Positions 18,153 to 28,570 of a stretch of DNA of 41,907 bases are shown piece by piece. Under the pieces are notes generated by a model. It was not told the origin of the DNA. It made no database searches and saw nothing but the letters and a program-made list of their open reading frames with translations. Every line of letters starts with the position of its first letter. Within the stretch, counting starts at the first letter, position 1. Made by a program: the position numbers and the translations under genes. Source of the stretch: Longimicrobiales bacterium (GTDB taxonomy: Bacteria; Gemmatimonadota; Gemmatimonadetes; Longimicrobiales; RSA9); assembly GCA_035461765.1 (NCBI GenBank), contig DATHUY010000015.1, positions 1 to 41,907 of the forward strand, written 5' to 3'.

Positions 18153-18632
18153 TCACTGGAGCGCCCAGCCGATGTAGATCCGGCGCACCGTATCCGCCTG
18201 GATGACGGCGTCGATGACGTGCAGTGCGGAGTCGCCCGCATACGTGTACGTCCAGCTGGGCTCGCTGCGTGTCGTCGGGTCGCCGTACAGCCGGCGCAGC
18301 CGTTCGGCCGGATCCCCTACCTCCACGCCGCGCGCGGTGCTCTCGCCCGGTGCGTCGATCATGTAGCCGATCGGCGTGGCGCCCCCGCCGAACCGGATCT
18401 CGAAGCCATCATAGAGCCACGTGACAAGCGGCGTGCTGTCGTCGAACGGGTTGCGCGATTCGACCGTCGAGTCCGGATCGCCGAACGTCAGGCGGAGCTC
18501 CGCCGAGTCGGCGTCGACCGGCACGCCGCGCAGTGTGAAGTCGTCCGGCTCCAGCGGCAGGGCCGGCGGCGCGGGCGGCGGTCCGCACGAGATCACGAGC
18601 AGCAGACTGAACAACCGGCTCCGCGACGTCAC
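18153..18632 (-). CDS. Small lipoprotein of unknown function
   Basis: 159 residues. The first 16 residues form a lipoprotein signal ending LLLVISC. The mature part is Pro-rich at first, then mixed strand and turn. It contains [20 protein letters not shown], and a later [20 protein letters not shown] that reads like a small repeated fold. It starts with GTG, overlapping the stop of the VOC dioxygenase gene by four bases (GTGA). No family is recognised. Confidence 0.75.
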
Positions 18633-19579
18633 TCGATCGGCTGGAGGTTGGCGACGATCTTCTCGCGATGCGGCTCCAGGAACGGCGGCAGCGCGATCCG
18701 CTCGCCGAGCGTGGCCTCGTCCTCATCCACGGCGAAGCCGGGCTCGTCCGTCGCGATCTCGAAGAGGATGCCGTTCGGCTCGCGGAAATAGAGACTGCGG
18801 AAGTAGTAGCGATCGATCGGTCCGCTGTTCGGCACACCCATCTGGCCGAGCCGACCGACCCATCGGTCGTATTCCGAGTACGTCGGCGTGCGGAACGCGA
18901 CGTGGTGAACGCCGCCCGCGCCCTGTCGCGCAATCGGGAGATCCGGCTGAATCGACACGTGCAGCTCCGCACCAGCACCGCCCGGGCCCATCTCGAACAC
19001 GTGCACGCGATTCAGCGAGGTCGCGGGGTGTGAGTACTCACGCACCCCCCTCATGTTCAGCACTTCCGTGAGGATCGCCGCCGTGGGAGCCAGGTCGGGC
19101 ACGCTCATGACGATCGGGCCGAGCCCGCGGATCTGATGCTCGACGGGCACGGAGCTGCGCTCCCATGGGACCGCAGCGTCGCCCGTGCCATGGTCGTCGA
19201 CGAGCGACAGGCGCTGACCCTCGGCATCCTCGAAGTCGATCACAGCCCTGCCATCCCGCTCGATGATGCCCGTCGTCTCAACGTTCTCATCGGACAGATG
19301 CCGGGCCCACCACTCGAGCGAGTCGCCGCTCACGCGCAGCTGTGTGCGCACGATGCTGTGCGTGCCACGGCGCTCGGCCGGCATGTTCCAGTCGAAGAAC
19401 GTGATGTCCGTACCGGGACTCCCCGCACCGTCGGCATAGAACAGATGGTACGCACTCACGTCATCCTGGTTGACGCTGCGCTTCACCAGCCGCAGGCCCA
19501 GCACACGCGTGAAGAATCGGTAGTTGTCGCGGACGCGCCCCGTTATGGCCGTCAGATGATGTATGCCGCCCAGCTCCAT
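18629..19579 (-). CDS. VOC-family ring-cleaving dioxygenase (MhqO-like)
   Basis: 316 residues with two glyoxalase/VOC modules. The N-terminal module opens with [20 protein letters not shown] (first metal His). The C-terminal module has [19 protein letters not shown] and later [14 protein letters not shown], where the Glu is the expected third ligand. Proteins of this arrangement (MhqO, MhqA) are hydroquinone-type ring-cleaving dioxygenases and may take part in quinone detoxification. The substrate is inferred from the family only. The ATG follows GGAGGGG. It is coupled to the downstream lipoprotein gene. Confidence 0.9.
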
Positions 19580-19623: not shown

Positions 19624-20427
19624 CTACGGCGCCTCGCCGTACAGCTCACTCGGGTCCGTAGCCGCCAGCTCCACCAGGAAGGATGCGATCCGTTCAGTCA
19701 CGGCCCTGAAGAACGCTTCACCCCGGTCCGCTGTCGCGGCGCGCGGGTCGCCGACACCGGTATCCTCCGTTACCTGCGTCCATTCCCGTTGTGTCCACGC
19801 CCAGCCCTCGCGGAACGCGGCCACGCGGAACGGTCGCGCGGCGCCCGTCCCCGCCTGGTCGAGCGGCAGCACGAGGTGGGGCGCGAGATACATGACGACG
19901 CTGGTCTCGAGCTCGCCCGCGTGGTCGCCCGGCTCACTGAAGAACTGCGTCGCATCGACACTGGTCCACCAGTTCAGCGTGCACAGCAGCAGGCGCGTGT
20001 GCGGCTGAAGCTCGCGGAGCAGGGTCTTGAAGTCGTTGCCGCCGTGGCCGTTCAGCACCACCAGTGCGCGGATGCCGTGCGGCTCGAGCGACGTTGTGAT
20101 ATCGCGCAGCACGGCTGCCTGCGTGGACGGGTTCATGTTGATGCAGAACGGTATGTCGAGCTGGCCCGTCTGCACGCCGAACGGTATGGCGGGCAGCACC
20201 ATGACGCGCGCACCATCGTCCGCGGCGATGCGTGCAGCTTCCGCAGCCACGGCCGCCGCCTGAAGAGTGTCGGTCCCATACGGCATATGAAGGTTGTGTG
20301 CCTCCGTCGCGCCCCAGGGCAGGAGCGCGATATCGACGCGCGCGTCGCGCACGTTCCTCCAGTTCGATTCCTCCAGCATCCAGCGTCGTCGCACGGTCAC
20401 GGCGGCCTCGGAGTTGGGGTGGTTCAT
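19624..20427 (-). CDS. Creatininase-family amidohydrolase
   Basis: 267 residues. Metal ligands typical of the creatininase fold are visible: E42, H44 and D53 (TEAHNLHMPYGTDT), the NGHGGN stretch, and Glu in DHAGELETS. Creatininase and its relatives open cyclic amides or act on amide/lactam substrates with a two-metal centre. The ATG at 20427 overlaps the stop of the Nramp-like gene (ATGA), making it the last of the six-gene operon with pxpB, pxpC and pxpA. The context suggests a lactam or amide related to 5-oxoproline, but the substrate is unproven. Confidence 0.9.
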   Translation of the reverse strand: MNHPNSEAAVTVRRRWMLEESNWRNVRDARVDIALLPWGATEAHNLHMPYGTDTLQAAAVAAEAARIAADDGARVMVLPAIPFGVQTGQLDIPFCINMNPSTQAAVLRDITTSLEPHGIRALVVLNGHGGNDFKTLLRELQPHTRLLLCTLNWWTSVDATQFFSEPGDHAGELETSVVMYLAPHLVLPLDQAGTGAARPFRVAAFREGWAWTQREWTQVTEDTGVGDPRAATADRGEAFFRAVTERIASFLVELAATDPSELYGEAP

Positions 20428-21629
20428 GCGAAGAGGCGCGGCAGCTCGCGCACGAGCGTCCAGGCGCCCAGCGCGCCCATGAGCACGGCCGTGAGAATGC
20501 CGGCGAGCGTCAGCAATCGCGGATGGCGGTAATCGCCGACAACGGCGGTGCGGTGTGCCGCCACGAGCATCACGCCCAGCGCCAGGGGCAGGATCATGCC
20601 ATTGACCGCGCCGGCGAGGATCAGCAGCCGGACGGGCCGGCCGATCGTGAGAAAGATGGCGGTCGAGAGCAGTATGAAGGCGATGGTCGCGGTGCGCGGG
20701 CGGCGGTCGATGATGGGCACGGACGAACGCAGGAACGACACGGACGTGTAGGACGCGCCGACCACGGACGTGATCGCGGCCGCCCACATCACGACGCCGA
20801 ATACGCGACGTCCGATCGCGCCGGCGGCAGCCTCGAACACGGCCGCGGGCGGGTTGGCCGCGCCCAGGATGTCCGCGCGTGCCACGACACCGAGTGCGGC
20901 CAGGAATAGCGCGACGCGGACGAACGACGCGACGCCGATCCCCGTCAGCGCGCTGCGCTGCACCTGCCGCAGCGCGCCGGCACCCTTCACACCGGCGTCG
21001 AGCAGACGGTGGCCGCCCGCGAACGTGATGTAGCCGCCGACCGTGCCGCCGACGAGCGTGACGATCTCGAGAATGCCGATCTGCTCGGGCCACACGCTCC
21101 GCAGCGCTGCCTCCCCCAGCGGTGGCGCGGACGTGATCATCACGTATGCCATCAGCGCAATCATGACGACGCCCAGCACCTGCGTGAAGCGGTCCATCGC
21201 ACGGCCGGCCTCGCGCACGACGAAGATCGATATCGCGACCACCGCGCTGGCCGCGGCACCGGCGCGCGGATCGACATCGAGCAGCGCGTTCGCGCCCAGG
21301 CCGGTCCCCGCGATGTTACCGACATTGAACGCGAGTCCGCCAATGGCGATGAAGCCGGCGAGGACGTGACCGAGACCGGGGAGTACGATGTTCGCGATGT
21401 CCTGCGCGCGCCGCTCGCCCACGGCGATCACGCGCCAGATGTTGAGCTGAGCGGCCAGGTCGAGCAGCACGGACATCAGGATCGCGAAGCCGAAGCTTGC
21501 TCCGAGCCGCGCGGTGAAGACGGTGGTCTGCGTGAGGAAGCCGGGCCCCACCGCTGACGTGGCCATCAGGAACGCCGCGCCCGTGATCGCCGCACTGCGC
21601 GCGCGGAGCGTCGCTGTCTCGCCGGTCAT
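20424..21629 (-). CDS. Nramp-fold transporter lacking the metal-binding motifs (YcsG-like)
   Basis: 401 residues with about eleven membrane helices. The first helix reads SAVGPGFLTQTTVFT; canonical metal-transporting Nramp proteins have DPGN at this point. In helix 6 the usual MPH motif is replaced by GGYITFAGGHRLLDAG. This is the pattern of the YcsG branch, whose genes sit beside pxpABC. It may therefore move an organic solute such as 5-oxoproline rather than a metal; that is inference from sequence and neighbourhood. Its ATG overlaps the pxpA stop, and its stop overlaps the creatininase start. Confidence 0.85.
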   Translation of the reverse strand: MTGETATLRARSAAITGAAFLMATSAVGPGFLTQTTVFTARLGASFGFAILMSVLLDLAAQLNIWRVIAVGERRAQDIANIVLPGLGHVLAGFIAIGGLAFNVGNIAGTGLGANALLDVDPRAGAAASAVVAISIFVVREAGRAMDRFTQVLGVVMIALMAYVMITSAPPLGEAALRSVWPEQIGILEIVTLVGGTVGGYITFAGGHRLLDAGVKGAGALRQVQRSALTGIGVASFVRVALFLAALGVVARADILGAANPPAAVFEAAAGAIGRRVFGVVMWAAAITSVVGASYTSVSFLRSSVPIIDRRPRTATIAFILLSTAIFLTIGRPVRLLILAGAVNGMILPLALGVMLVAAHRTAVVGDYRHPRLLTLAGILTAVLMGALGAWTLVRELPRLFA

Positions 21630-22381
21630 GGTGCTCCCGGCGGCGCCACGCGCACGGGGGCGTCGTTCAGCACGGCGCGCACTCTTCGCGCGATGTCCAC
21701 TGCATGGGCGCCGTCTCCATGAATGCAGATCGTCTCCGCGCGCACGCGCATGTCGCTCCCCGCGGTAGTGGTGACGGTCCGATCGACAACCATGCGCAGC
21801 ACGCGCGCAGCGGCCGTGTCGGGGTCCTCGATCAGTGCGCCGGCCGCGCCGCGCGGCGTCAGAGTGCCATCGGTCTCATAGGCACGGTCGGCGAAGGCTT
21901 CGGCGATCGGGCGCAGTCCGATCAGCTCCGCCTCGGTGATGAGCGTACTGCCCGCGAGACCGTACAGCAGCAGGTTCGGATCCGTGTCCAGGACCGCGCG
22001 GACGACCGCGCGGGCGATATGCGCGTCCACGGCGGCATCGTTGTACAGCGCGCCGTGCGGCTTCACATGCGTGATCGGTGTCCCTGTCTCGCGCGCGACA
22101 TCGCGCAGGTCCGCAATCTGGCTGGATACCGCATTATAGATCTCGGCGGGCGTCAGCTCCATGCGGCGCCGGCCGAATCCTTCCCGGTCCGGATAGCCCG
22201 GATGGGCGCCGGCCGCAGTGCGATGGCGGGCAGCGAGCAGCAGCGTCTCGCGCATAGTGTGCGCATCGCCTGCATGTCCGCCGCAGGCAATGTTCGCGGA
22301 CGAGATGTGCGGCATCAGCTCCGCGTCGTGACCGGCGCCCTCGCCCATGTCGCAGTTCAGGTCGATTCGCAGCATGCTCAT
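21626..22381 (-). CDS. pxpA: 5-oxoprolinase subunit A (LamB/YcsF family)
   Basis: 251 residues. The LamB/YcsF signature is intact: DLNCDMGEG, then SANIACGGHAGD, GAHPGYPDREGFGR and THVKPHGALYND, which line the active site in this family. PxpA acts with PxpB and PxpC to hydrolyse 5-oxoproline to glutamate using ATP. The three-subunit enzyme is the common bacterial alternative to the eukaryotic single-chain 5-oxoprolinase. The ATG overlaps the pxpC stop and the stop overlaps the Nramp-like start. Confidence 0.96.
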   Translation of the reverse strand: MSMLRIDLNCDMGEGAGHDAELMPHISSANIACGGHAGDAHTMRETLLLAARHRTAAGAHPGYPDREGFGRRRMELTPAEIYNAVSSQIADLRDVARETGTPITHVKPHGALYNDAAVDAHIARAVVRAVLDTDPNLLLYGLAGSTLITEAELIGLRPIAEAFADRAYETDGTLTPRGAAGALIEDPDTAAARVLRMVVDRTVTTTAGSDMRVRAETICIHGDGAHAVDIARRVRAVLNDAPVRVAPPGAP

Positions 22382-23364
22382 GCAGTGTGCAGAACGTGGA
22401 GCCCCGTGGCAAACATCCGCAGATCGTGCTCCCGCCGGAGATACAGTGTCTGTGCGTCGGCCAGGCTCACCTCGCGAAAGCGGACGCGCGCGCCCGGCGC
22501 CGCCTGCGCCAGCAGCGGCAGGTCCACCGTGATGACGGACGCGATGCGCGGGTAGCCGCCAATGGTCTGATGATCGGCCATCAGCACGATCGGGTCGCCC
22601 GACGGCGGCACCTGAACGGTGCCCATGGTGACGGGCGAGGAATGAAGATCATACAGTCCCGAGAGCGACAGCGATGGGCCCCTCAGGCGGAGACCCATGC
22701 GGTTCGACTGCGGCGTCACCTCGAACTCACCCGCCACGAGCAGCTGGCGCGATGCAGGCGAGAAGCGATCGTGCTCGGGGCCGCGGATGATGCGCACCAC
22801 GGGAGCGGCACTGTAACGCGGGATCAGGCTGCGTCCGGCGCGCGGCGCGCGATCGGGCGCGGCCAGCAGCCGGTCGCGCATGCGGTCAGCGGCTCCGCCA
22901 GGCGTACCGGTCGGCAACTCATCGCCCGGTGCGAGCGCACGACCCTCGTGGCCGCCGATCGAGGCGATCAGGTCGGTGGCACGACTGCCGAGCACGAGCG
23001 GGACGTCGATGCCGCCCGCGACGCCAATGCAGGCGCGGCAGCCGGTGCGCGGTTCGGTGAACGAGAGGACACTGCCGGCCGGCACAATGAAGGGGGTCCA
23101 CAGCGGCACGGTGCGGCCTTCCAGCGTGGCGCCGAGGTCACCGCCGCCGAGCGCGACCACGCTCTCCTCCACGAACTCCAGGGCGGGTCCCAGGAGCGTG
23201 CACTCCAGTGCGGCGGCAGTGTCGGCGTTGCCGACGAGCAGGTTCGCGATCCGATGCGCGAGCGCGTCCATTGCCCCGCCGCGCGATATGCCGTGCTGCT
23301 GCATGCCGCGCCGTCCGAGGTCCTGCACCGTCGTGAGCAGGCCGGCGCGCCTGACGCGGATCAC
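22378..23364 (-). CDS. pxpC: 5-oxoprolinase subunit C (biotin-dependent carboxyltransferase family)
   Basis: 328 residues, the KipA/AHS2-like fold (related to the C-terminal part of urea amidolyase carboxyltransferase). Landmarks are [20 protein letters not shown] near the N-terminus, [20 protein letters not shown] in the middle and [10 protein letters not shown] near 240. It is the partner of PxpB. It starts with GTG, overlapping the pxpB stop by four bases (GTGA), so the two subunits are probably made in equal amounts. Confidence 0.95.
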
Positions 23365-24035
23365 GCGTCGCTCGCGTCGACGAAACGCACGCGGTCGCCG
23401 ATGCGCAGCAGTGTGGGCGGGTCCAGCTCGGGCCGGAAAAGCCGCTCATCCGTGCGTCCGATGATCTGCCAGCCGCCCGGCGTGCGCAGCGGATAGATCC
23501 CCGTCTGCTTCCCCGCGATGCCGACCGATCCCGCCCGCACCGAGGCCCGCGGCGACGAGCGCCGCGGCGTCGCCAGCCGCTCCGGCAGGCCGCCGAGATA
23601 CGCAAAGCCCGGCGTGAAGCCGACCATGAACACCGTGTACTCCGCGCCCGCATGCTGCGCGACCACTTCCGCGACCGACAGGCCGGCATGCCGCGCCACG
23701 AACTCCAGGTCAGGGCCGTCCTCGCCGCCGTACCGCACCGCGATCTCCACGGTACGCCCGGGCGGGACGACCTCGGCCGGCACGTCCTCCAGCGTCGTCA
23801 CGACCGTGCGTCGCATCGTTTCGTATGGACTGCCATCGCGTTCGCTGCGCGCCACGGGCACCGGGTCGTAATGCACGGCAATACCGGTGTACGCGGGCAC
23901 GATGTCGGTGACGCCGGGAATGGCCGCCGCGGAGAGCGCGTCGAACGCCGCGCGCACGCGTGCGTGCGTCGCGGCATCGATCACATGACCGAGCTCGATG
24001 AGGAGGGCGGCGTCACCGAGCGGCTGCACGCGCAT
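23361..24035 (-). CDS. pxpB: 5-oxoprolinase subunit B (KipI/AHS1 family)
   Basis: 224 residues with the KipI/AHS1 fold. Landmarks are [12 protein letters not shown] at the start, [18 protein letters not shown] in the middle, then [17 protein letters not shown] and [12 protein letters not shown]. In Bacillus, KipI also inhibits the sporulation kinase KinA, but there is no sign of that role here. The ATG lies only three bases after the stop of the beta-propeller gene. The order pxpB-pxpC-pxpA is the same as in E. coli ybgJKL. Confidence 0.95.
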
Positions 24036-24038
24036 CGA

Positions 24039-25322
24039 CTAGTCCCGGGCGGGCAGCGTGAAGCGCGCGATGTGCTCGACATCCATGTCGTCACGCAGGA
24101 CACCGTACATCGACCGCTGCGCGGCACTCATGGGCCGGAACGCGGCGGGCAGTCTCGCTGTCACGAGGAACCGGCCCTCGTGATCGAACACGTCCCAGAA
24201 CGTGTCCTGTCGCGTGCCCTCCCGTGACCATTCCAGCCGCACGGGATCCGGCGCCAGGTCCGGCCGGTTCGCCCACAGCACGCCTTCAGCGGCAACGAGC
24301 AGCCGCCCCAGCGCGGGCAGCGTCTCGTTCACCGGCAGGTCCGCACGCCCCTGTTCCGCCGCGACCGTGATGGGCCATTCACCGTGACGGTTCGATGAGG
24401 TGTCGAGATAGGTGTTCACCTTGTCCCAGTACCGGTCGTTCAGATCGCCCGCGGCCGGCACCGGTGTGTGGTCCCGGGTGATGCTGCGCCACCGCACGCC
24501 GTCCGCGTCGAACACGTCGATGCGATAGGGTGCGCCATGCGCCACGTAGATGTTGCCCGAGCCGTCCACCGCGTGGGACGGTGACGGCTCCCACAACGGC
24601 GAGTTGGCCGTCATGCCGCTGCGGCCGTTCATCTCGTAGTGGATGCCGAACGTCCGTCCAGTCTCGTATTCCACGACCGGCCGGAAGCCGGGCGTTTCCG
24701 CACCGTCGTCGTTGCCGGCGTCCGGCGGCGCGAGCTGCGTCAGATCGGCGAACAGCACGCGGGCCGTATCCCGCCGCGCCTTGCCGATCTCCAGGTTCCA
24801 GCCCGGTGTGACCCGCTGAACCAGCCAGCCGCCGTTCGCGCGAGCGGTCGGAAAGACGATCGTGCGTTCCTGTCGCAGCGGGATCGTGCCGAGCACGGCA
24901 CCGTCGGCATCGAACTCCGTGATGCGGTAGAGTCCCACATCCACGATGGCCGTGGTGTCGCCGTAAAGGTGAATGGCGGACGGCCGCTGGAACTCGCCCG
25001 GCCCGGCGCCGCGGCTGCCGAACCGACGCACGAACGCCCCGGCGGAATCGAAGTGCCGGATGGTGCCGGACCCGTCGCCGACCAGGACGCCACCGTCCGG
25101 CGTGACGGCGAGCGCGGAAACACGAAAGAACTGAAGCTCCTCCGGCCCGTCCACCGTGCCGATCGTGAGGTCGGGCTCGAGCGTGACCGTGTCGACCTGG
25201 CCGCCGTTGCGCACGAGCTGGACGCCCGCGCTGTCGACAACCTCGGTGCGGCTCGCGCGCTCGCTCGCGCCGCCGCACGCGACGCAGAGCATGAGCGGCA
25301 GAACGGCTGCGGATCGGAGCAT
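24039..25322 (-). CDS. Six-bladed beta-propeller lipoprotein
   Basis: 427 residues. A lipoprotein signal ends LCVAC (Cys16). The mature part has repeats typical of NHL/6-bladed beta-propellers: ALAVTPDGGVLVGDGSG, GSRGAGPGEFQRPSAIHLYG and HAVDGSGNIYVAHG. Such lipoproteins are common in Gemmatimonadota-like genomes as ligand-binding or scaffold proteins; no enzymatic residues are seen. It is the first gene of the pxp operon, so it might be a binding protein for the peptide or lactam that the operon degrades. That is inference. The upstream region is shared with the M14 peptidase on the other strand. Confidence 0.88.
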   Translation of the reverse strand: MLRSAAVLPLMLCVACGGASERASRTEVVDSAGVQLVRNGGQVDTVTLEPDLTIGTVDGPEELQFFRVSALAVTPDGGVLVGDGSGTIRHFDSAGAFVRRFGSRGAGPGEFQRPSAIHLYGDTTAIVDVGLYRITEFDADGAVLGTIPLRQERTIVFPTARANGGWLVQRVTPGWNLEIGKARRDTARVLFADLTQLAPPDAGNDDGAETPGFRPVVEYETGRTFGIHYEMNGRSGMTANSPLWEPSPSHAVDGSGNIYVAHGAPYRIDVFDADGVRWRSITRDHTPVPAAGDLNDRYWDKVNTYLDTSSNRHGEWPITVAAEQGRADLPVNETLPALGRLLVAAEGVLWANRPDLAPDPVRLEWSREGTRQDTFWDVFDHEGRFLVTARLPAAFRPMSAAQRSMYGVLRDDMDVEHIARFTLPARD

Positions 25323-25412
25323 GGTCTCGGCGCCCTGTCGGAGAACACGGGGATGCTGCGTCCAAGATGTCTCCGCGGGTCGCTGAAAATCAACGAAAAC
25401 CGACGCATCTGC

Positions 25413-25440
25413 TTGACACTGCCGCGGTTCGCCCCATTAT
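25413..25440 (+). promoter_or_regulatory. Sigma70-type promoter of the M14 peptidase gene
   Basis: A perfect -35 box TTGACA (25413-25418), a 16-base spacer and CATTAT (25435-25440, four of six matches to TATAAT). Transcription would start about 33 bases before the ATG at 25480. The flanking region is visibly A/T-richer than the surrounding DNA. This is the most convincing promoter in the window. The leftward promoter of the pxp operon must lie in the same gap, but I cannot place it. Confidence 0.65.
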
Positions 25441-25479
25441 GCGACGTCCCCACCCTTCCAGGCACGCACGGAGAACTCA

Positions 25480-27402
25480 ATGTCGAGGTCGAGGAATGTC
25501 GCGGCGATCGCGCTGGCATCACTGCTCGCGGCCGCGCCGGCCGCCGCGCAGACACGCGAGACAGTGCCACCCGAGGCGGAACGCAGCGACGAATGGTTCC
25601 AGCTGAACCCGGAACGCCACGGCGTCAGCTACTTCGCGCGGCACCGCCATCCGCAGGTGCAGTACGAGGCCGGGGATGTGCTGGCGTTCGACCGGTACCA
25701 CACGGTGGACGTCATGTACACCTGGCTCCGCCGCTGGGCGGAGCAGCATCCCGGAATTGTCGAGCTGTACGAGGTGGGGCGGAGCTACGAGGGTCGGCCG
25801 ATCCTTCAGATGACGCTGACGAACAAGTCGACCGGCCCGAAGGAGGAGAAGCCCGCGGCGTACTTCGAGGGCGGCCGCCACAGTGGCGAGATCACGTCAT
25901 CGGAGTCGGTACTGTGGCTGGCGAAGCACCTGATCGAGAACTACGGCCGTGACCCTCAGATCACGCACCTGCTCGACACGAAGGCCGTGACACTGCGGCC
26001 GCAGAACAACCCGGACGGGTCGAACATGTACCTGCACACCGCGGTCATGAACCGCAGCACGGTACGCCCGGTCGACAACGACAATGATGGCCTGTTCGAC
26101 GAGGATGAGGCCGACGACATCGATGGCGACGGCGTCATCTACACCATGCGCTGGAAGCCGACGATGACCGGCGCCGATACGGTTGCGCCGACGATGGTGC
26201 TCGACGAGAAAGACCCGAGCGGCCGGCTGATGCGCCGCGCGCGCGACGGCGAGACCGCGATCTGGCGCACCATGAGCGAAGGGATCGACAACGACGGGGA
26301 CGGCCGTTTCAACGAGGATGGCATCGGCGGCCTGGACCTGCACCGCAACTACCCGGAGAACTGGCGTCCGGATCGCGGCGGCGATGCGACGGGGCGCGGC
26401 TACACGCAGGGCGGCGCGGGCGAGTTCCCGCTGAGTGAGCCGGAGACTCGCAGCGTGGTCCTGTGGCTGCTGTCGAATCCGAACATCTCGGTGGTGAACT
26501 CGATGGACACGCGGGTACCGATGCATCTGCGGCCGCCATCGACGTCGAAGTCCGAAGAGCGGATGTACCCCGAGGACCTCCGCTACTATCAGCACTTCGA
26601 CACGGTCGGACTGCGCATCACGGAGTATCCGTGGGCGGGCGATGTCTATCACACCTACGCGACGCGCAACAATCCGGAAGGGAATCCGAGTCCGCTGTTC
26701 GGGCACGGTCCGGACTTCGGATACTTCTACTACGGCTCGATCTGGTACGGCGATGAGCTGTGGAACGGCGGGATCATGCGCGACGAGAACGACGATGGCG
26801 AGCGCGACCAGCTGGACGCGCTGATCTGGGATGACCGCGAGAACGGCGGCGCCAACTTCAAGCCGTGGACGCCCGCGCACCATCCGGTATTTGGCGACGT
26901 GGAAGTCGGCGGCTTCCATCCCAAGTTCTTCTCGCAGAACGGACCGCCGAACGTGCTGGAGCGCTGGGCGAGCCGGCAGGCGCTGTTCAACCTGGAGATG
27001 GCGTACGCACTGCCGGAGCTGGCCTGGCAGGACGTGCGGGTCCGTCGTGTGCAGCAGCATGGCGCCGACAGCGCGACGCACGAGGTGCGCGTGCAGTGGA
27101 AGAACAACGGGCGGCTGCCGACGGCACTGAAGCAGGCGCAGCTGGTGAAGATCGTGCAGGAGGACCGGTTGAACCTGTCGTTCGTGAGGGACACGGCGGC
27201 GGAGTCGCGCGCTCCGCGCGTCGTGGAGCCGGATCTGCGTGGCGGTGCCGTGTGGAGCGGCTGGACCGAGCCGGGTCAGACGAAGACGGTGACATACCGC
27301 GTCCGGACGTACGGCGCCGAACCCGTGCGCGCTACCCTGAGGCTGGACTCCACGCGCGGCGGTGTGCTGCGACGGGAGATCGACATCGTACCGGGCGGCT
27401 GA
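25480..27402 (+). CDS. Exported M14 carboxypeptidase with unusual zinc site
   Basis: 640 residues, with a signal peptide to about residue 24 (AAAQ). The catalytic core, about residues 70-435, has the first two zinc ligands in H134-S-G-E137 and a candidate catalytic E426 in GDELWNGG. The third ligand is normally the His of an HT motif upstream of LRPP. Here the aligned residue is D343 (NSMDTRVPMHLRPPSTS). Two Asp-rich stretches (about 199-218 and 268-281) look like thrombospondin type-3 calcium loops. A beta-rich tail of about 130 residues follows. M14 enzymes remove C-terminal amino acids from peptides; activity here depends on the Asp ligand. It is divergent from the pxp operon. Confidence 0.9.
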   Translation: MSRSRNVAAIALASLLAAAPAAAQTRETVPPEAERSDEWFQLNPERHGVSYFARHRHPQVQYEAGDVLAFDRYHTVDVMYTWLRRWAEQHPGIVELYEVGRSYEGRPILQMTLTNKSTGPKEEKPAAYFEGGRHSGEITSSESVLWLAKHLIENYGRDPQITHLLDTKAVTLRPQNNPDGSNMYLHTAVMNRSTVRPVDNDNDGLFDEDEADDIDGDGVIYTMRWKPTMTGADTVAPTMVLDEKDPSGRLMRRARDGETAIWRTMSEGIDNDGDGRFNEDGIGGLDLHRNYPENWRPDRGGDATGRGYTQGGAGEFPLSEPETRSVVLWLLSNPNISVVNSMDTRVPMHLRPPSTSKSEERMYPEDLRYYQHFDTVGLRITEYPWAGDVYHTYATRNNPEGNPSPLFGHGPDFGYFYYGSIWYGDELWNGGIMRDENDDGERDQLDALIWDDRENGGANFKPWTPAHHPVFGDVEVGGFHPKFFSQNGPPNVLERWASRQALFNLEMAYALPELAWQDVRVRRVQQHGADSATHEVRVQWKNNGRLPTALKQAQLVKIVQEDRLNLSFVRDTAAESRAPRVVEPDLRGGAVWSGWTEPGQTKTVTYRVRTYGAEPVRATLRLDSTRGGVLRREIDIVPGG

Positions 27403-27783: not shown

Positions 27784-28127
27784 GCGGGACGCCGCCCCGC
27801 GTGGGGAGCCGCACTGCCGCGCTCACCGTGCCGTGTCACGTGAGTGACCGCTGGCTGCGGTTCGAGGAGCGCGAGCAGTTCGAGGTCCTCGACGAGGATC
27901 TGATCCAGGTCGACGTGATGACGCGCGATGATGACGGCGAGCCGTACAAGCTCTGCGAGCTGGTCCTCGCCCGCGGCGATCTGCTGCGGGCCATCGCGGC
28001 CTATGGCGATCCGCCGTTCCGCACCGCTCCCGTGCGCAAGACGCCGCCGGCCGCACAGGCCGAGGCGCCGCGGCCGCGCAAGCGGGGCAGGGCGGTGCCG
28101 GAGCAGCCCACACTGGACGAGCAGTGA
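27780..28127 (+). CDS. Small unknown protein
   Basis: 115 residues if read from GTG 27780, which overlaps the ybjQ stop; GTG 27840 would give 95 residues and is also possible. The conserved-looking part begins at [20 protein letters not shown]. It is followed by a mixed acidic and hydrophobic section and a basic, Pro/Ala-rich tail ([13 protein letters not shown]). No signal peptide or membrane helix is seen. The stop overlaps the next start (GTGA). I do not recognise a family. Confidence 0.6.
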
Positions 28128-28570
28128 CGGAGCTCGTGTCGCTTGCGACACCGGCGCTGAAGGCCTCGCTCGAGCAGTGCGGCCTCAGCGAGAGCGCGGC
28201 CAGCGACGTGCTGGAGCACGGGCCGTTCGAGAACGACGACCAGCTGTGCAGGGCCGTCGATGCCGTGATGCTGGGACTGGACGAAGCGGAGCTGCGGACA
28301 CTGCTCGAGGCAGTGCCGCCACCTGCGGTCGAGCACGGCCATCCGGACGTCCGGGACGCCGCGCTTCTCGCCATCAGGCTGTACCGTGACCGTTTCGGCT
28401 TCCCGTTCGTCTCCGCCATCGCGACACCTACCGCCGACGAGCTGCTCATGCGCGTGCGGATCCGGCTCGGTAACGAGCCCGAGCCGGAGGGGCGCGCGGC
28501 GCGCGAACATCTGCGGCGCGTGGTCCGCCGCAGGATGCAGGATCTCCGGGAAACGGATGCGGCCGGCTAG
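28124..28570 (+). CDS. OHCU decarboxylase-like protein, shortened
   Basis: 148 residues. The C-terminal part, LYRDRFGFPFVSAIATPTAD and then RIRLGNEPEPEGRAAREHLR, matches OHCU decarboxylase (UraD, last step of uric acid breakdown to allantoin). The N-terminal helices fit the fold. The His of the HPDV stretch (H73) could correspond to the catalytic His of the HPxL motif. However, the EQ-containing segment that should follow is absent, and the protein is shorter than the usual 160-170 residues. It is probably not a functional decarboxylase. No other ureide-pathway gene is nearby. It starts with GTG overlapping the previous stop. Confidence 0.6.
   Translation: MTELVSLATPALKASLEQCGLSESAASDVLEHGPFENDDQLCRAVDAVMLGLDEAELRTLLEAVPPPAVEHGHPDVRDAALLAIRLYRDRFGFPFVSAIATPTADELLMRVRIRLGNEPEPEGRAAREHLRRVVRRRMQDLRETDAAG

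What the first reader, a model, noticed from the sequence alone, without database searches (positions are those of the whole stretch)
19624..27402. Pyroglutamate/peptide scavenging locus: pxpBCA operon with creatininase, Nramp-like carrier, propeller lipoprotein and divergent M14 peptidase
Six minus-strand genes follow each other with 4-base overlaps (3 bases between propeller and pxpB). PxpABC as 5-oxoprolinase is established. A creatininase-type lactam/amide hydrolase and a carrier lacking metal motifs in the same operon suggest a pathway for a cyclic amide beyond plain 5-oxoproline. The lipoprotein and the M14 peptidase could supply the substrate outside the inner membrane. The combination is my inference.
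Basis: partly seen in the sequence, partly recalled or inferred. Interest (0 to 1): 0.6.

Follow-up and report, generated by a model that had tools for sequence, protein, structure and literature searches.

The report
Ordinary 5-oxoproline operon, accidental neighbours
This bacterium carries a standard gene set for taking up and opening 5-oxoproline (pyroglutamate); the extra genes beside it (a creatininase-like enzyme, a propeller lipoprotein and a peptidase) are next to it only in this one genus and look like chance neighbours, not parts of a new pathway.

Summary
Six minus-strand genes (creatininase-family, Nramp-like carrier, pxpA, pxpC, pxpB, propeller lipoprotein) are joined by four 4-base overlaps and one 3-base gap, with a divergent M14 peptidase. 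The core, pxpB-pxpC-pxpA plus the Nramp-like carrier, is a member of a known kind: ATP-dependent 5-oxoprolinase with its YcsG/PxpT carrier. The carrier lacks both metal motifs, as do its relatives from three other phyla. Of 394 Gemmatimonadota genomes, 91 have pxpA, 167 have this creatininase and 41 have both (38.6 expected). The two genes lie on one contig only in the window's genome and its single congener. None of 79 other named creatininase orthologue loci has pxp genes nearby. The propeller is absent from the congener's operon. The M14 orthologue occurs in 55 genomes and shares only 7 with pxpA (12.7 expected). The genome has no recognisable C15 pyroglutamyl peptidase. The most likely reading is an ordinary 5-oxoproline uptake and ring-opening operon with unrelated neighbours. 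A side observation of interest: this M14 subfamily has Asp in place of the third zinc-binding His.

The parts
23361..24035 (-). pxpB, 5-oxoprolinase subunit (CT_C_D)
   Evidence: PF02682 E 8.8e-74; TIGR00370 216 bits against cut-off 145.6
22378..23364 (-). pxpC, 5-oxoprolinase subunit (CT_A_B)
   Evidence: PF02626 E 6.8e-93; TIGR00724 290 bits against cut-off 230; below the narrow NF045499 cut-off
21626..22381 (-). pxpA, 5-oxoprolinase subunit (LamB/YcsF)
   Evidence: PF03746 E 3.6e-93; NF003814 314 bits against cut-off 226; YbgL structure 1xw8 E 2.7e-68
20424..21629 (-). pxpT/ycsG-type Nramp-like carrier, probable 5-oxoproline uptake; TM1 and TM6 metal motifs absent
   Evidence: PF01566; 51-60% identical to pxp-linked carriers of Deinococcus, Bacillus badius and Thioclava; motif columns replaced and invariant
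19624..20427 (-). creatininase-family metal-dependent amidohydrolase of the 3LUB type; in the operon only in this genus, probably not part of 5-oxoproline use
   Evidence: PF02633 E 7e-60; 3lub E 1e-63; below all creatininase-family equivalog cut-offs; 2 of 41 genomes with both genes have them linked
24039..25322 (-). propeller lipoprotein, first gene of the run, present in the operon only in this species; one of about 13 relatives in the genome
   Evidence: absent from the congener's operon, whose best match is 37% and elsewhere
25480..27402 (+). divergent exported M14 peptidase, HxxE...D variant; not linked to pxp outside the genus
   Evidence: PF00246 E 1e-36; orthologues in 55 of 394 genomes, linked to pxp only in the genus; Asp343 in 30 of 30
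25323..25479 (.). divergent intergenic region; sigma-70-like TTGACA-16-CATTAT on + strand, -10 part conserved in the congener
18629..19579 (-). two-domain glyoxalase/VOC protein continuing the minus-strand run
   Evidence: PF00903 two stretches, E 5.6e-20; 81% identical and syntenic in the congener
18153..18632 (-). small protein with N-terminal hydrophobic segment and Cys, last of the run, GTGA overlap with the VOC gene
   Evidence: no Pfam match; 61% identical in the congener

Best explanation
An ordinary 5-oxoproline utilisation operon. The Nramp-like carrier (PxpT/YcsG type) most likely brings 5-oxoproline across the inner membrane, and PxpA-PxpB-PxpC open the lactam ring with ATP to give glutamate. 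The conserved functional unit is pxpB-pxpC-pxpA-pxpT only. The creatininase-family amidohydrolase is a single-copy gene common in the phylum that happens to lie beside this operon in one genus and is probably co-transcribed there without being part of the pathway. The propeller lipoprotein is most simply a species-level insertion between the divergent promoter region and pxpB. The M14 peptidase is a neighbour with its own promoter. Shown: gene identities, gene order, absence of metal motifs, absence of conserved linkage. Inferred from homologues: substrate and reaction. Inferred from overlaps: co-transcription.
For: Family identities. The pxpB-C-A-T order is kept in family members G143, G284 and G286 and in family f3, and pxpT lies beside pxp genes in Deinococcus, Bacillus badius and Thioclava. 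In Corynebacterium glutamicum pxpT and pxpABC are both required for growth on 5-oxoproline (PMC13274462), and B. subtilis ycsG is required for 5-oxoproline use (cited there). PxpT lacks DPGN and MPH in all eight homologues aligned. Creatininase linkage: 41 genomes have both genes, same contig only in G000 and G147, co-occurrence 41 against 38.6 expected, p 0.32; 79 named orthologue loci in several phyla have no pxp gene nearby. M14: 7 shared genomes against 12.7 expected. The congener has the operon without the propeller. No C15 peptidase in the genome.
Against: Four ATGA/GTGA overlaps tie the genes tightly together in this species, one of them joining creatininase to carrier, and the creatininase has stayed there in both members of the genus at 71-72% identity, so a genus-level function is not excluded. 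Only two genomes of the genus are held, and their whole 20 kb is syntenic, so persistence within the genus is weak evidence either way. B. subtilis YcsG has been reported as a Mn2+ importer (PMC10448178), and MumT of A. baumannii, in a related-looking operon, likewise (PMC5050338), so the carrier's substrate is not settled. PxpC scores below the narrow equivalog cut-off.
Confidence: 0.85

Rival explanations
1. One reading: one pathway in which propeller lipoprotein and M14 peptidase release a substrate outside the inner membrane, the carrier imports it, and creatininase plus PxpABC open a cyclic amide other than plain 5-oxoproline.
For: Tight overlaps in this species; creatininase, M14 and pxp adjacent in both genomes of the genus.
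Against: No linkage or positive co-occurrence of creatininase or M14 with pxp elsewhere in the phylum; propeller absent from the congener's operon and a member of a large paralogous set; no C15 pyroglutamyl peptidase in the genome; the divergent M14 gene has its own promoter-like site.
Confidence: 0.05
2. Genus-level recruitment: the creatininase-family enzyme has become an accessory of the operon in this genus, feeding a 5-oxoproline- or glutamate-type product from an amide substrate, while propeller and M14 are unrelated.
For: ATGA overlap in the window and conserved order in both congeners; the family's metal-binding and HAGExET positions are kept, so the enzyme is probably active.
Against: Orthologues of the same subfamily are kept in 126 phylum genomes without pxpA (167 with the gene, 41 of them with pxpA) and in other phyla with no common neighbour, so its usual job is independent of 5-oxoproline.
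Confidence: 0.08
3. The carrier is a Mn2+ (or other metal) importer and the operon couples metal supply to 5-oxoprolinase or creatininase, which are metal enzymes.
For: YcsG overexpression raises cellular Mn in B. subtilis (PMC10448178); MumT, a carrier in a related-looking operon of A. baumannii, raises Mn (PMC5050338); Pfam Nramp match.
Against: Both metal-binding motifs are absent and their replacements are invariant from Gemmatimonadota to Bacillus and Deinococcus; pxpT deletion abolishes growth on 5-oxoproline in C. glutamicum (PMC13274462).
Confidence: 0.1

Closest known systems
pxpTABC operon of Corynebacterium glutamicum (PMC13274462)
   Same: Nramp-like APC-superfamily carrier with PxpA, PxpB and PxpC encoded together
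   Different: Gene order B-C-A-T here; no pxpR regulator beside it; extra creatininase, propeller and VOC genes in the run
pxpA-ycsG-ycsI-kipI-kipA (pxpBC) operon of Bacillus subtilis
   Same: Same four core functions, YcsG-type carrier
   Different: B. subtilis has ycsI and kipR (own knowledge; a similar arrangement with a 'putative hydro-lyase' was seen in B. badius); neither is in the window run
3LUB, Bacteroides fragilis 'putative creatinine amidohydrolase' (function not assigned)
   Same: Creatininase-family subgroup, phmmer E 1e-63, aligned nearly end to end with the window enzyme
   Different: Not known as a pxp neighbour; no tested substrate known to me
Carboxypeptidase A (M14)
   Same: HxxE motif, Arg and general-base Glu positions kept
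   Different: Third zinc ligand His replaced by Asp in all 30 sequences aligned; extra insert regions and C-terminal part

Membership tests
PxpABC 5-oxoprolinase | PxpA subunit of the LamB/YcsF family over a curated cut-off | tested here: met
   NF003814 313.9 against 226; 1xw8 (YbgL) E 2.7e-68
PxpABC 5-oxoprolinase | PxpB subunit over the curated cut-off | tested here: met
   TIGR00370 216.2 against 145.6
PxpABC 5-oxoprolinase | PxpC subunit over the curated cut-off | tested here: inconclusive
   Broad TIGR00724 met (289.6 against 230.2); narrow equivalog NF045499 not reached (258.9 against 500)
PxpABC 5-oxoprolinase | ATP-dependent hydrolysis of 5-oxoproline to glutamate | not testable with these tools
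   needs enzyme assay
PxpT/YcsG carrier | Encoded beside pxpABC and close in sequence to pxp-linked carriers of other phyla | tested here: met
   51-60% identity to carriers beside pxp genes in Deinococcus, Bacillus badius, Thioclava
Canonical Nramp metal transporter (SLC11/MntH) | DPGN in TM1 and A/CxxMPH in TM6 | tested here: not met
   TM1 reads GPGFLTQT with the metal segment missing against 7QIA; TM6 reads GGYITFAGGHR; invariant or nearly so in eight homologues
Creatininase (creatinine amidohydrolase) | Equivalog score over the curated cut-off | tested here: not met
   TIGR04448 71.6 against 235
MftE peptidase / IolN hydrolase (creatininase superfamily) | Equivalog score over the curated cut-off | tested here: not met
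   TIGR03964 86.8 against 172; NF041098 37.3 against 245
Creatininase-like superfamily (PF02633) | Family profile and ExH...D...H...HAGE positions | tested here: met
   PF02633 202.8 bits against 31.3; E42, H44, D53, H128, H169, E172, E174 invariant in six orthologues; the metal roles are recalled, not tested
Pyroglutamyl-peptide scavenging system | Pyroglutamyl peptidase (family C15) in the genome | tested here: not met
   PF01470 absent from the 99% complete genome, found in 4 of 14 controls
Conserved creatininase-pxp gene neighbourhood | Linkage across related genomes | tested here: not met
   2 of 41 genomes, both of one genus; 1 of 80 named orthologue loci

The most novel reading that the evidence does not exclude
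In this genus a creatininase-family amidohydrolase has been recruited into the 5-oxoproline operon, so that a second cyclic or amide compound (for example a hydantoin- or imide-type relative of 5-oxoproline) taken up by the same metal-motif-free carrier is opened and fed into glutamate.
Probability: 0.07. Interest if true: 0.4.

Novelty: new member of a known kind. Interest (0 to 1): 0.15.

Why it matters
Mostly as a correction. Tight 4-base overlaps in one genome suggested a new pathway, but comparison over 394 genomes of the phylum shows that only pxpBCA and the carrier form a conserved unit. It also adds a comparative argument to an open dispute: the YcsG/PxpT carriers, described both as 5-oxoproline and as Mn2+ importers, lack the metal-binding motifs across four phyla, which fits the organic substrate better.

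Tried and rejected
Creatininase neighbours in about 83 orthologue loci were clustered to look for a common partner: none recurs widely; in Arenibacter-type Bacteroidota it lies near sialidase-, epimerase- and kelch-like genes, in Gemmatimonadota neighbours vary. The propeller as a glutaminyl cyclase that makes pyroglutamate: no match to such a family, only a marginal 6-bladed propeller match. AlphaFold model of the M14 peptidase: mean pLDDT 38 with a four-row alignment, so not used. PxpA tree: window and congener group together (99/97) but not with the other family members; this hints at a separate origin of the operon in the genus, but the deeper forks are weak and the bootstrap had not settled, so no claim is made. 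Paper searches for the creatininase subgroup and for its metal ligands gave nothing useful.
Full report
What is there. Pfam and NCBIfam give creatininase family, Nramp, PxpA, PxpC, PxpB, a marginal 6-bladed propeller, and on the other strand Peptidase_M14. The junctions read ATGA, ATGA, ATGA and GTGA, with three bases between propeller and pxpB. Four such overlaps in a row are the usual mark of co-transcribed, translationally coupled genes, though no transcript data exist.

Relatives of the whole locus. The window's genome (G000, 4.68 Mb, 99% complete) has one pxpA. Of 394 Gemmatimonadota genomes 91 have pxpA. Stretches round pxpA were fetched for all of them, up to 16-18 kb where the contig allowed and about 3.7 kb for a few. 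Around the 90 from other genomes, pxpB and pxpC are nearly always present, the Nramp-like carrier is near in 8, and creatininase, M14 and the VOC gene are near in one only: G147, the single other genome of the genus. G147, named in the public collection as Gemmatimonadetes bacterium SH-MAG3, is syntenic with the window over its whole fetched 20 kb, so adjacency there says little about function. It lacks the propeller: pxpB lies 156 bp from the M14 start. The divergent intergenic stretch, including the CATTAT box in front of M14, aligns between the two species. The propeller was therefore most simply inserted between that region and pxpB in the window's lineage, although loss in G147 is possible. 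The window genome holds 13 matches to this propeller protein and relatives hold up to 15; the congener's best match is 37% identical and elsewhere.

Creatininase. The orthologue is single-copy and common: 167 of 394 genomes. Forty-one genomes have both it and pxpA, 38.6 expected by chance (p 0.32), and the two are on one contig only in G000 and G147. In the same family, G143, G284 and G286 have pxpB-C-A-T with the creatininase on another contig, and G006, G187 and G385 have the creatininase without pxpA. A scan of named genomes returned 80 orthologue loci at about 50-73% identity in Gemmatimonadota, Bacteroidota, Planctomycetota, Spirochaetota and other groups; only the congener has pxp genes in the fetched flanks. 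Short contigs limit some single cases, but many of the genomes are assembled in a few dozen contigs, and direct adjacency would have been seen. The protein is far below the cut-offs for creatininase, MftE and IolN and closest to 3LUB, a Bacteroides fragilis structure. It keeps the family's metal-binding and active-site positions as far as I recall them, so it is probably an active amide hydrolase with an unknown substrate.

The carrier. Its nearest relatives on plasmids sit beside pxp genes in Deinococcus, Bacillus badius and Thioclava. In an alignment of eight such proteins TM1 reads GPGFxTQT and TM6 reads GGYITxAGxHR; against the magnesium transporter 7QIA the profile lacks the segment that carries the TM1 metal residues. 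The canonical motifs are DPGN and A/CxxM (PMC10115441). For that group there is genetic evidence for 5-oxoproline uptake in C. glutamicum (PMC13274462) and a contrary claim of Mn2+ import in B. subtilis (PMC10448178), with a similar claim for MumT of A. baumannii (PMC5050338). The missing motifs favour an organic substrate; they do not prove it.

M14 peptidase. Orthologues at 52-89% identity occur in 55 of 394 genomes; 7 of these also have pxpA, fewer than the 12.7 expected, and linkage is seen only in the genus. M14 enzymes are carboxypeptidases; none known to me frees N-terminal pyroglutamate, and the genome has no C15 pyroglutamyl peptidase. It is therefore not a supplier of 5-oxoproline in any way that can be argued from these data.

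How it most likely works. 5-Oxoproline enters through the PxpT-type carrier, and PxpA, PxpB and PxpC hydrolyse it with ATP to glutamate. Identity and gene order are shown; substrate and reaction are transferred from experimentally studied homologues; co-transcription is inferred from the overlaps. The creatininase-family enzyme and the VOC protein may share the transcript without sharing the pathway.

Verdict. A sound observation, an already known core system, and an over-extended interpretation. The genus-level recruitment of the creatininase cannot be excluded with two genomes and is given 7-8%.

Noticed in passing
25480-27402 (+), residues 134, 137, 343, 426; loci L132-L134, L233-L258: The M14 peptidase belongs to a subfamily in which the third zinc ligand (His196 of carboxypeptidase A) is Asp343. 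HxxE, Arg289, Asp343 and Glu426 are invariant in 30 of 30 aligned sequences, while M14 paralogues of the same genomes keep His. This looks like a distinct, probably active variant.
   Followed up: partly
L067-L085 and related pxp loci: In other Gemmatimonadota families pxpABC recurs beside a membrane-dipeptidase-like gene (10 loci, 8 of these genes within 200 bp) and an APC-type amino acid permease (11 loci), named from sequence by eye. Peptidase linkage may be real there, with other genes than those in the window.
   Followed up: no
L178, L191, L194, L195, L210, L232 (Arenibacter): The creatininase-family orthologue lies in a cluster with sialidase-like, epimerase-like and kelch-type genes and a FadR/GntR-type regulator in several of these, a possible clue to its substrate in Bacteroidota (gene names by eye).
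   Followed up: no
L002, L010, L039, window 21626-22381: The genus's PxpA does not group with PxpA of other members of its family; the pxp block may have entered the genus separately. Deep forks are weak.
   Followed up: partly
G286, L089 1731-2470: pxpA of G286 is split into two pieces in different frames, either a sequencing or assembly error or a broken gene.
   Followed up: no
L149 3211-5762: In Deinococcus wulumuqiensis plasmid pDrdI two annotated transposases lie between pxpB and the Nramp-like carrier.
   Followed up: no
28124-28570 (+): Protein with a partial OHCU decarboxylase match (54 bits, two stretches) beside the YbjQ-like and trehalose-synthase-like genes; identity not examined.
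   Followed up: no
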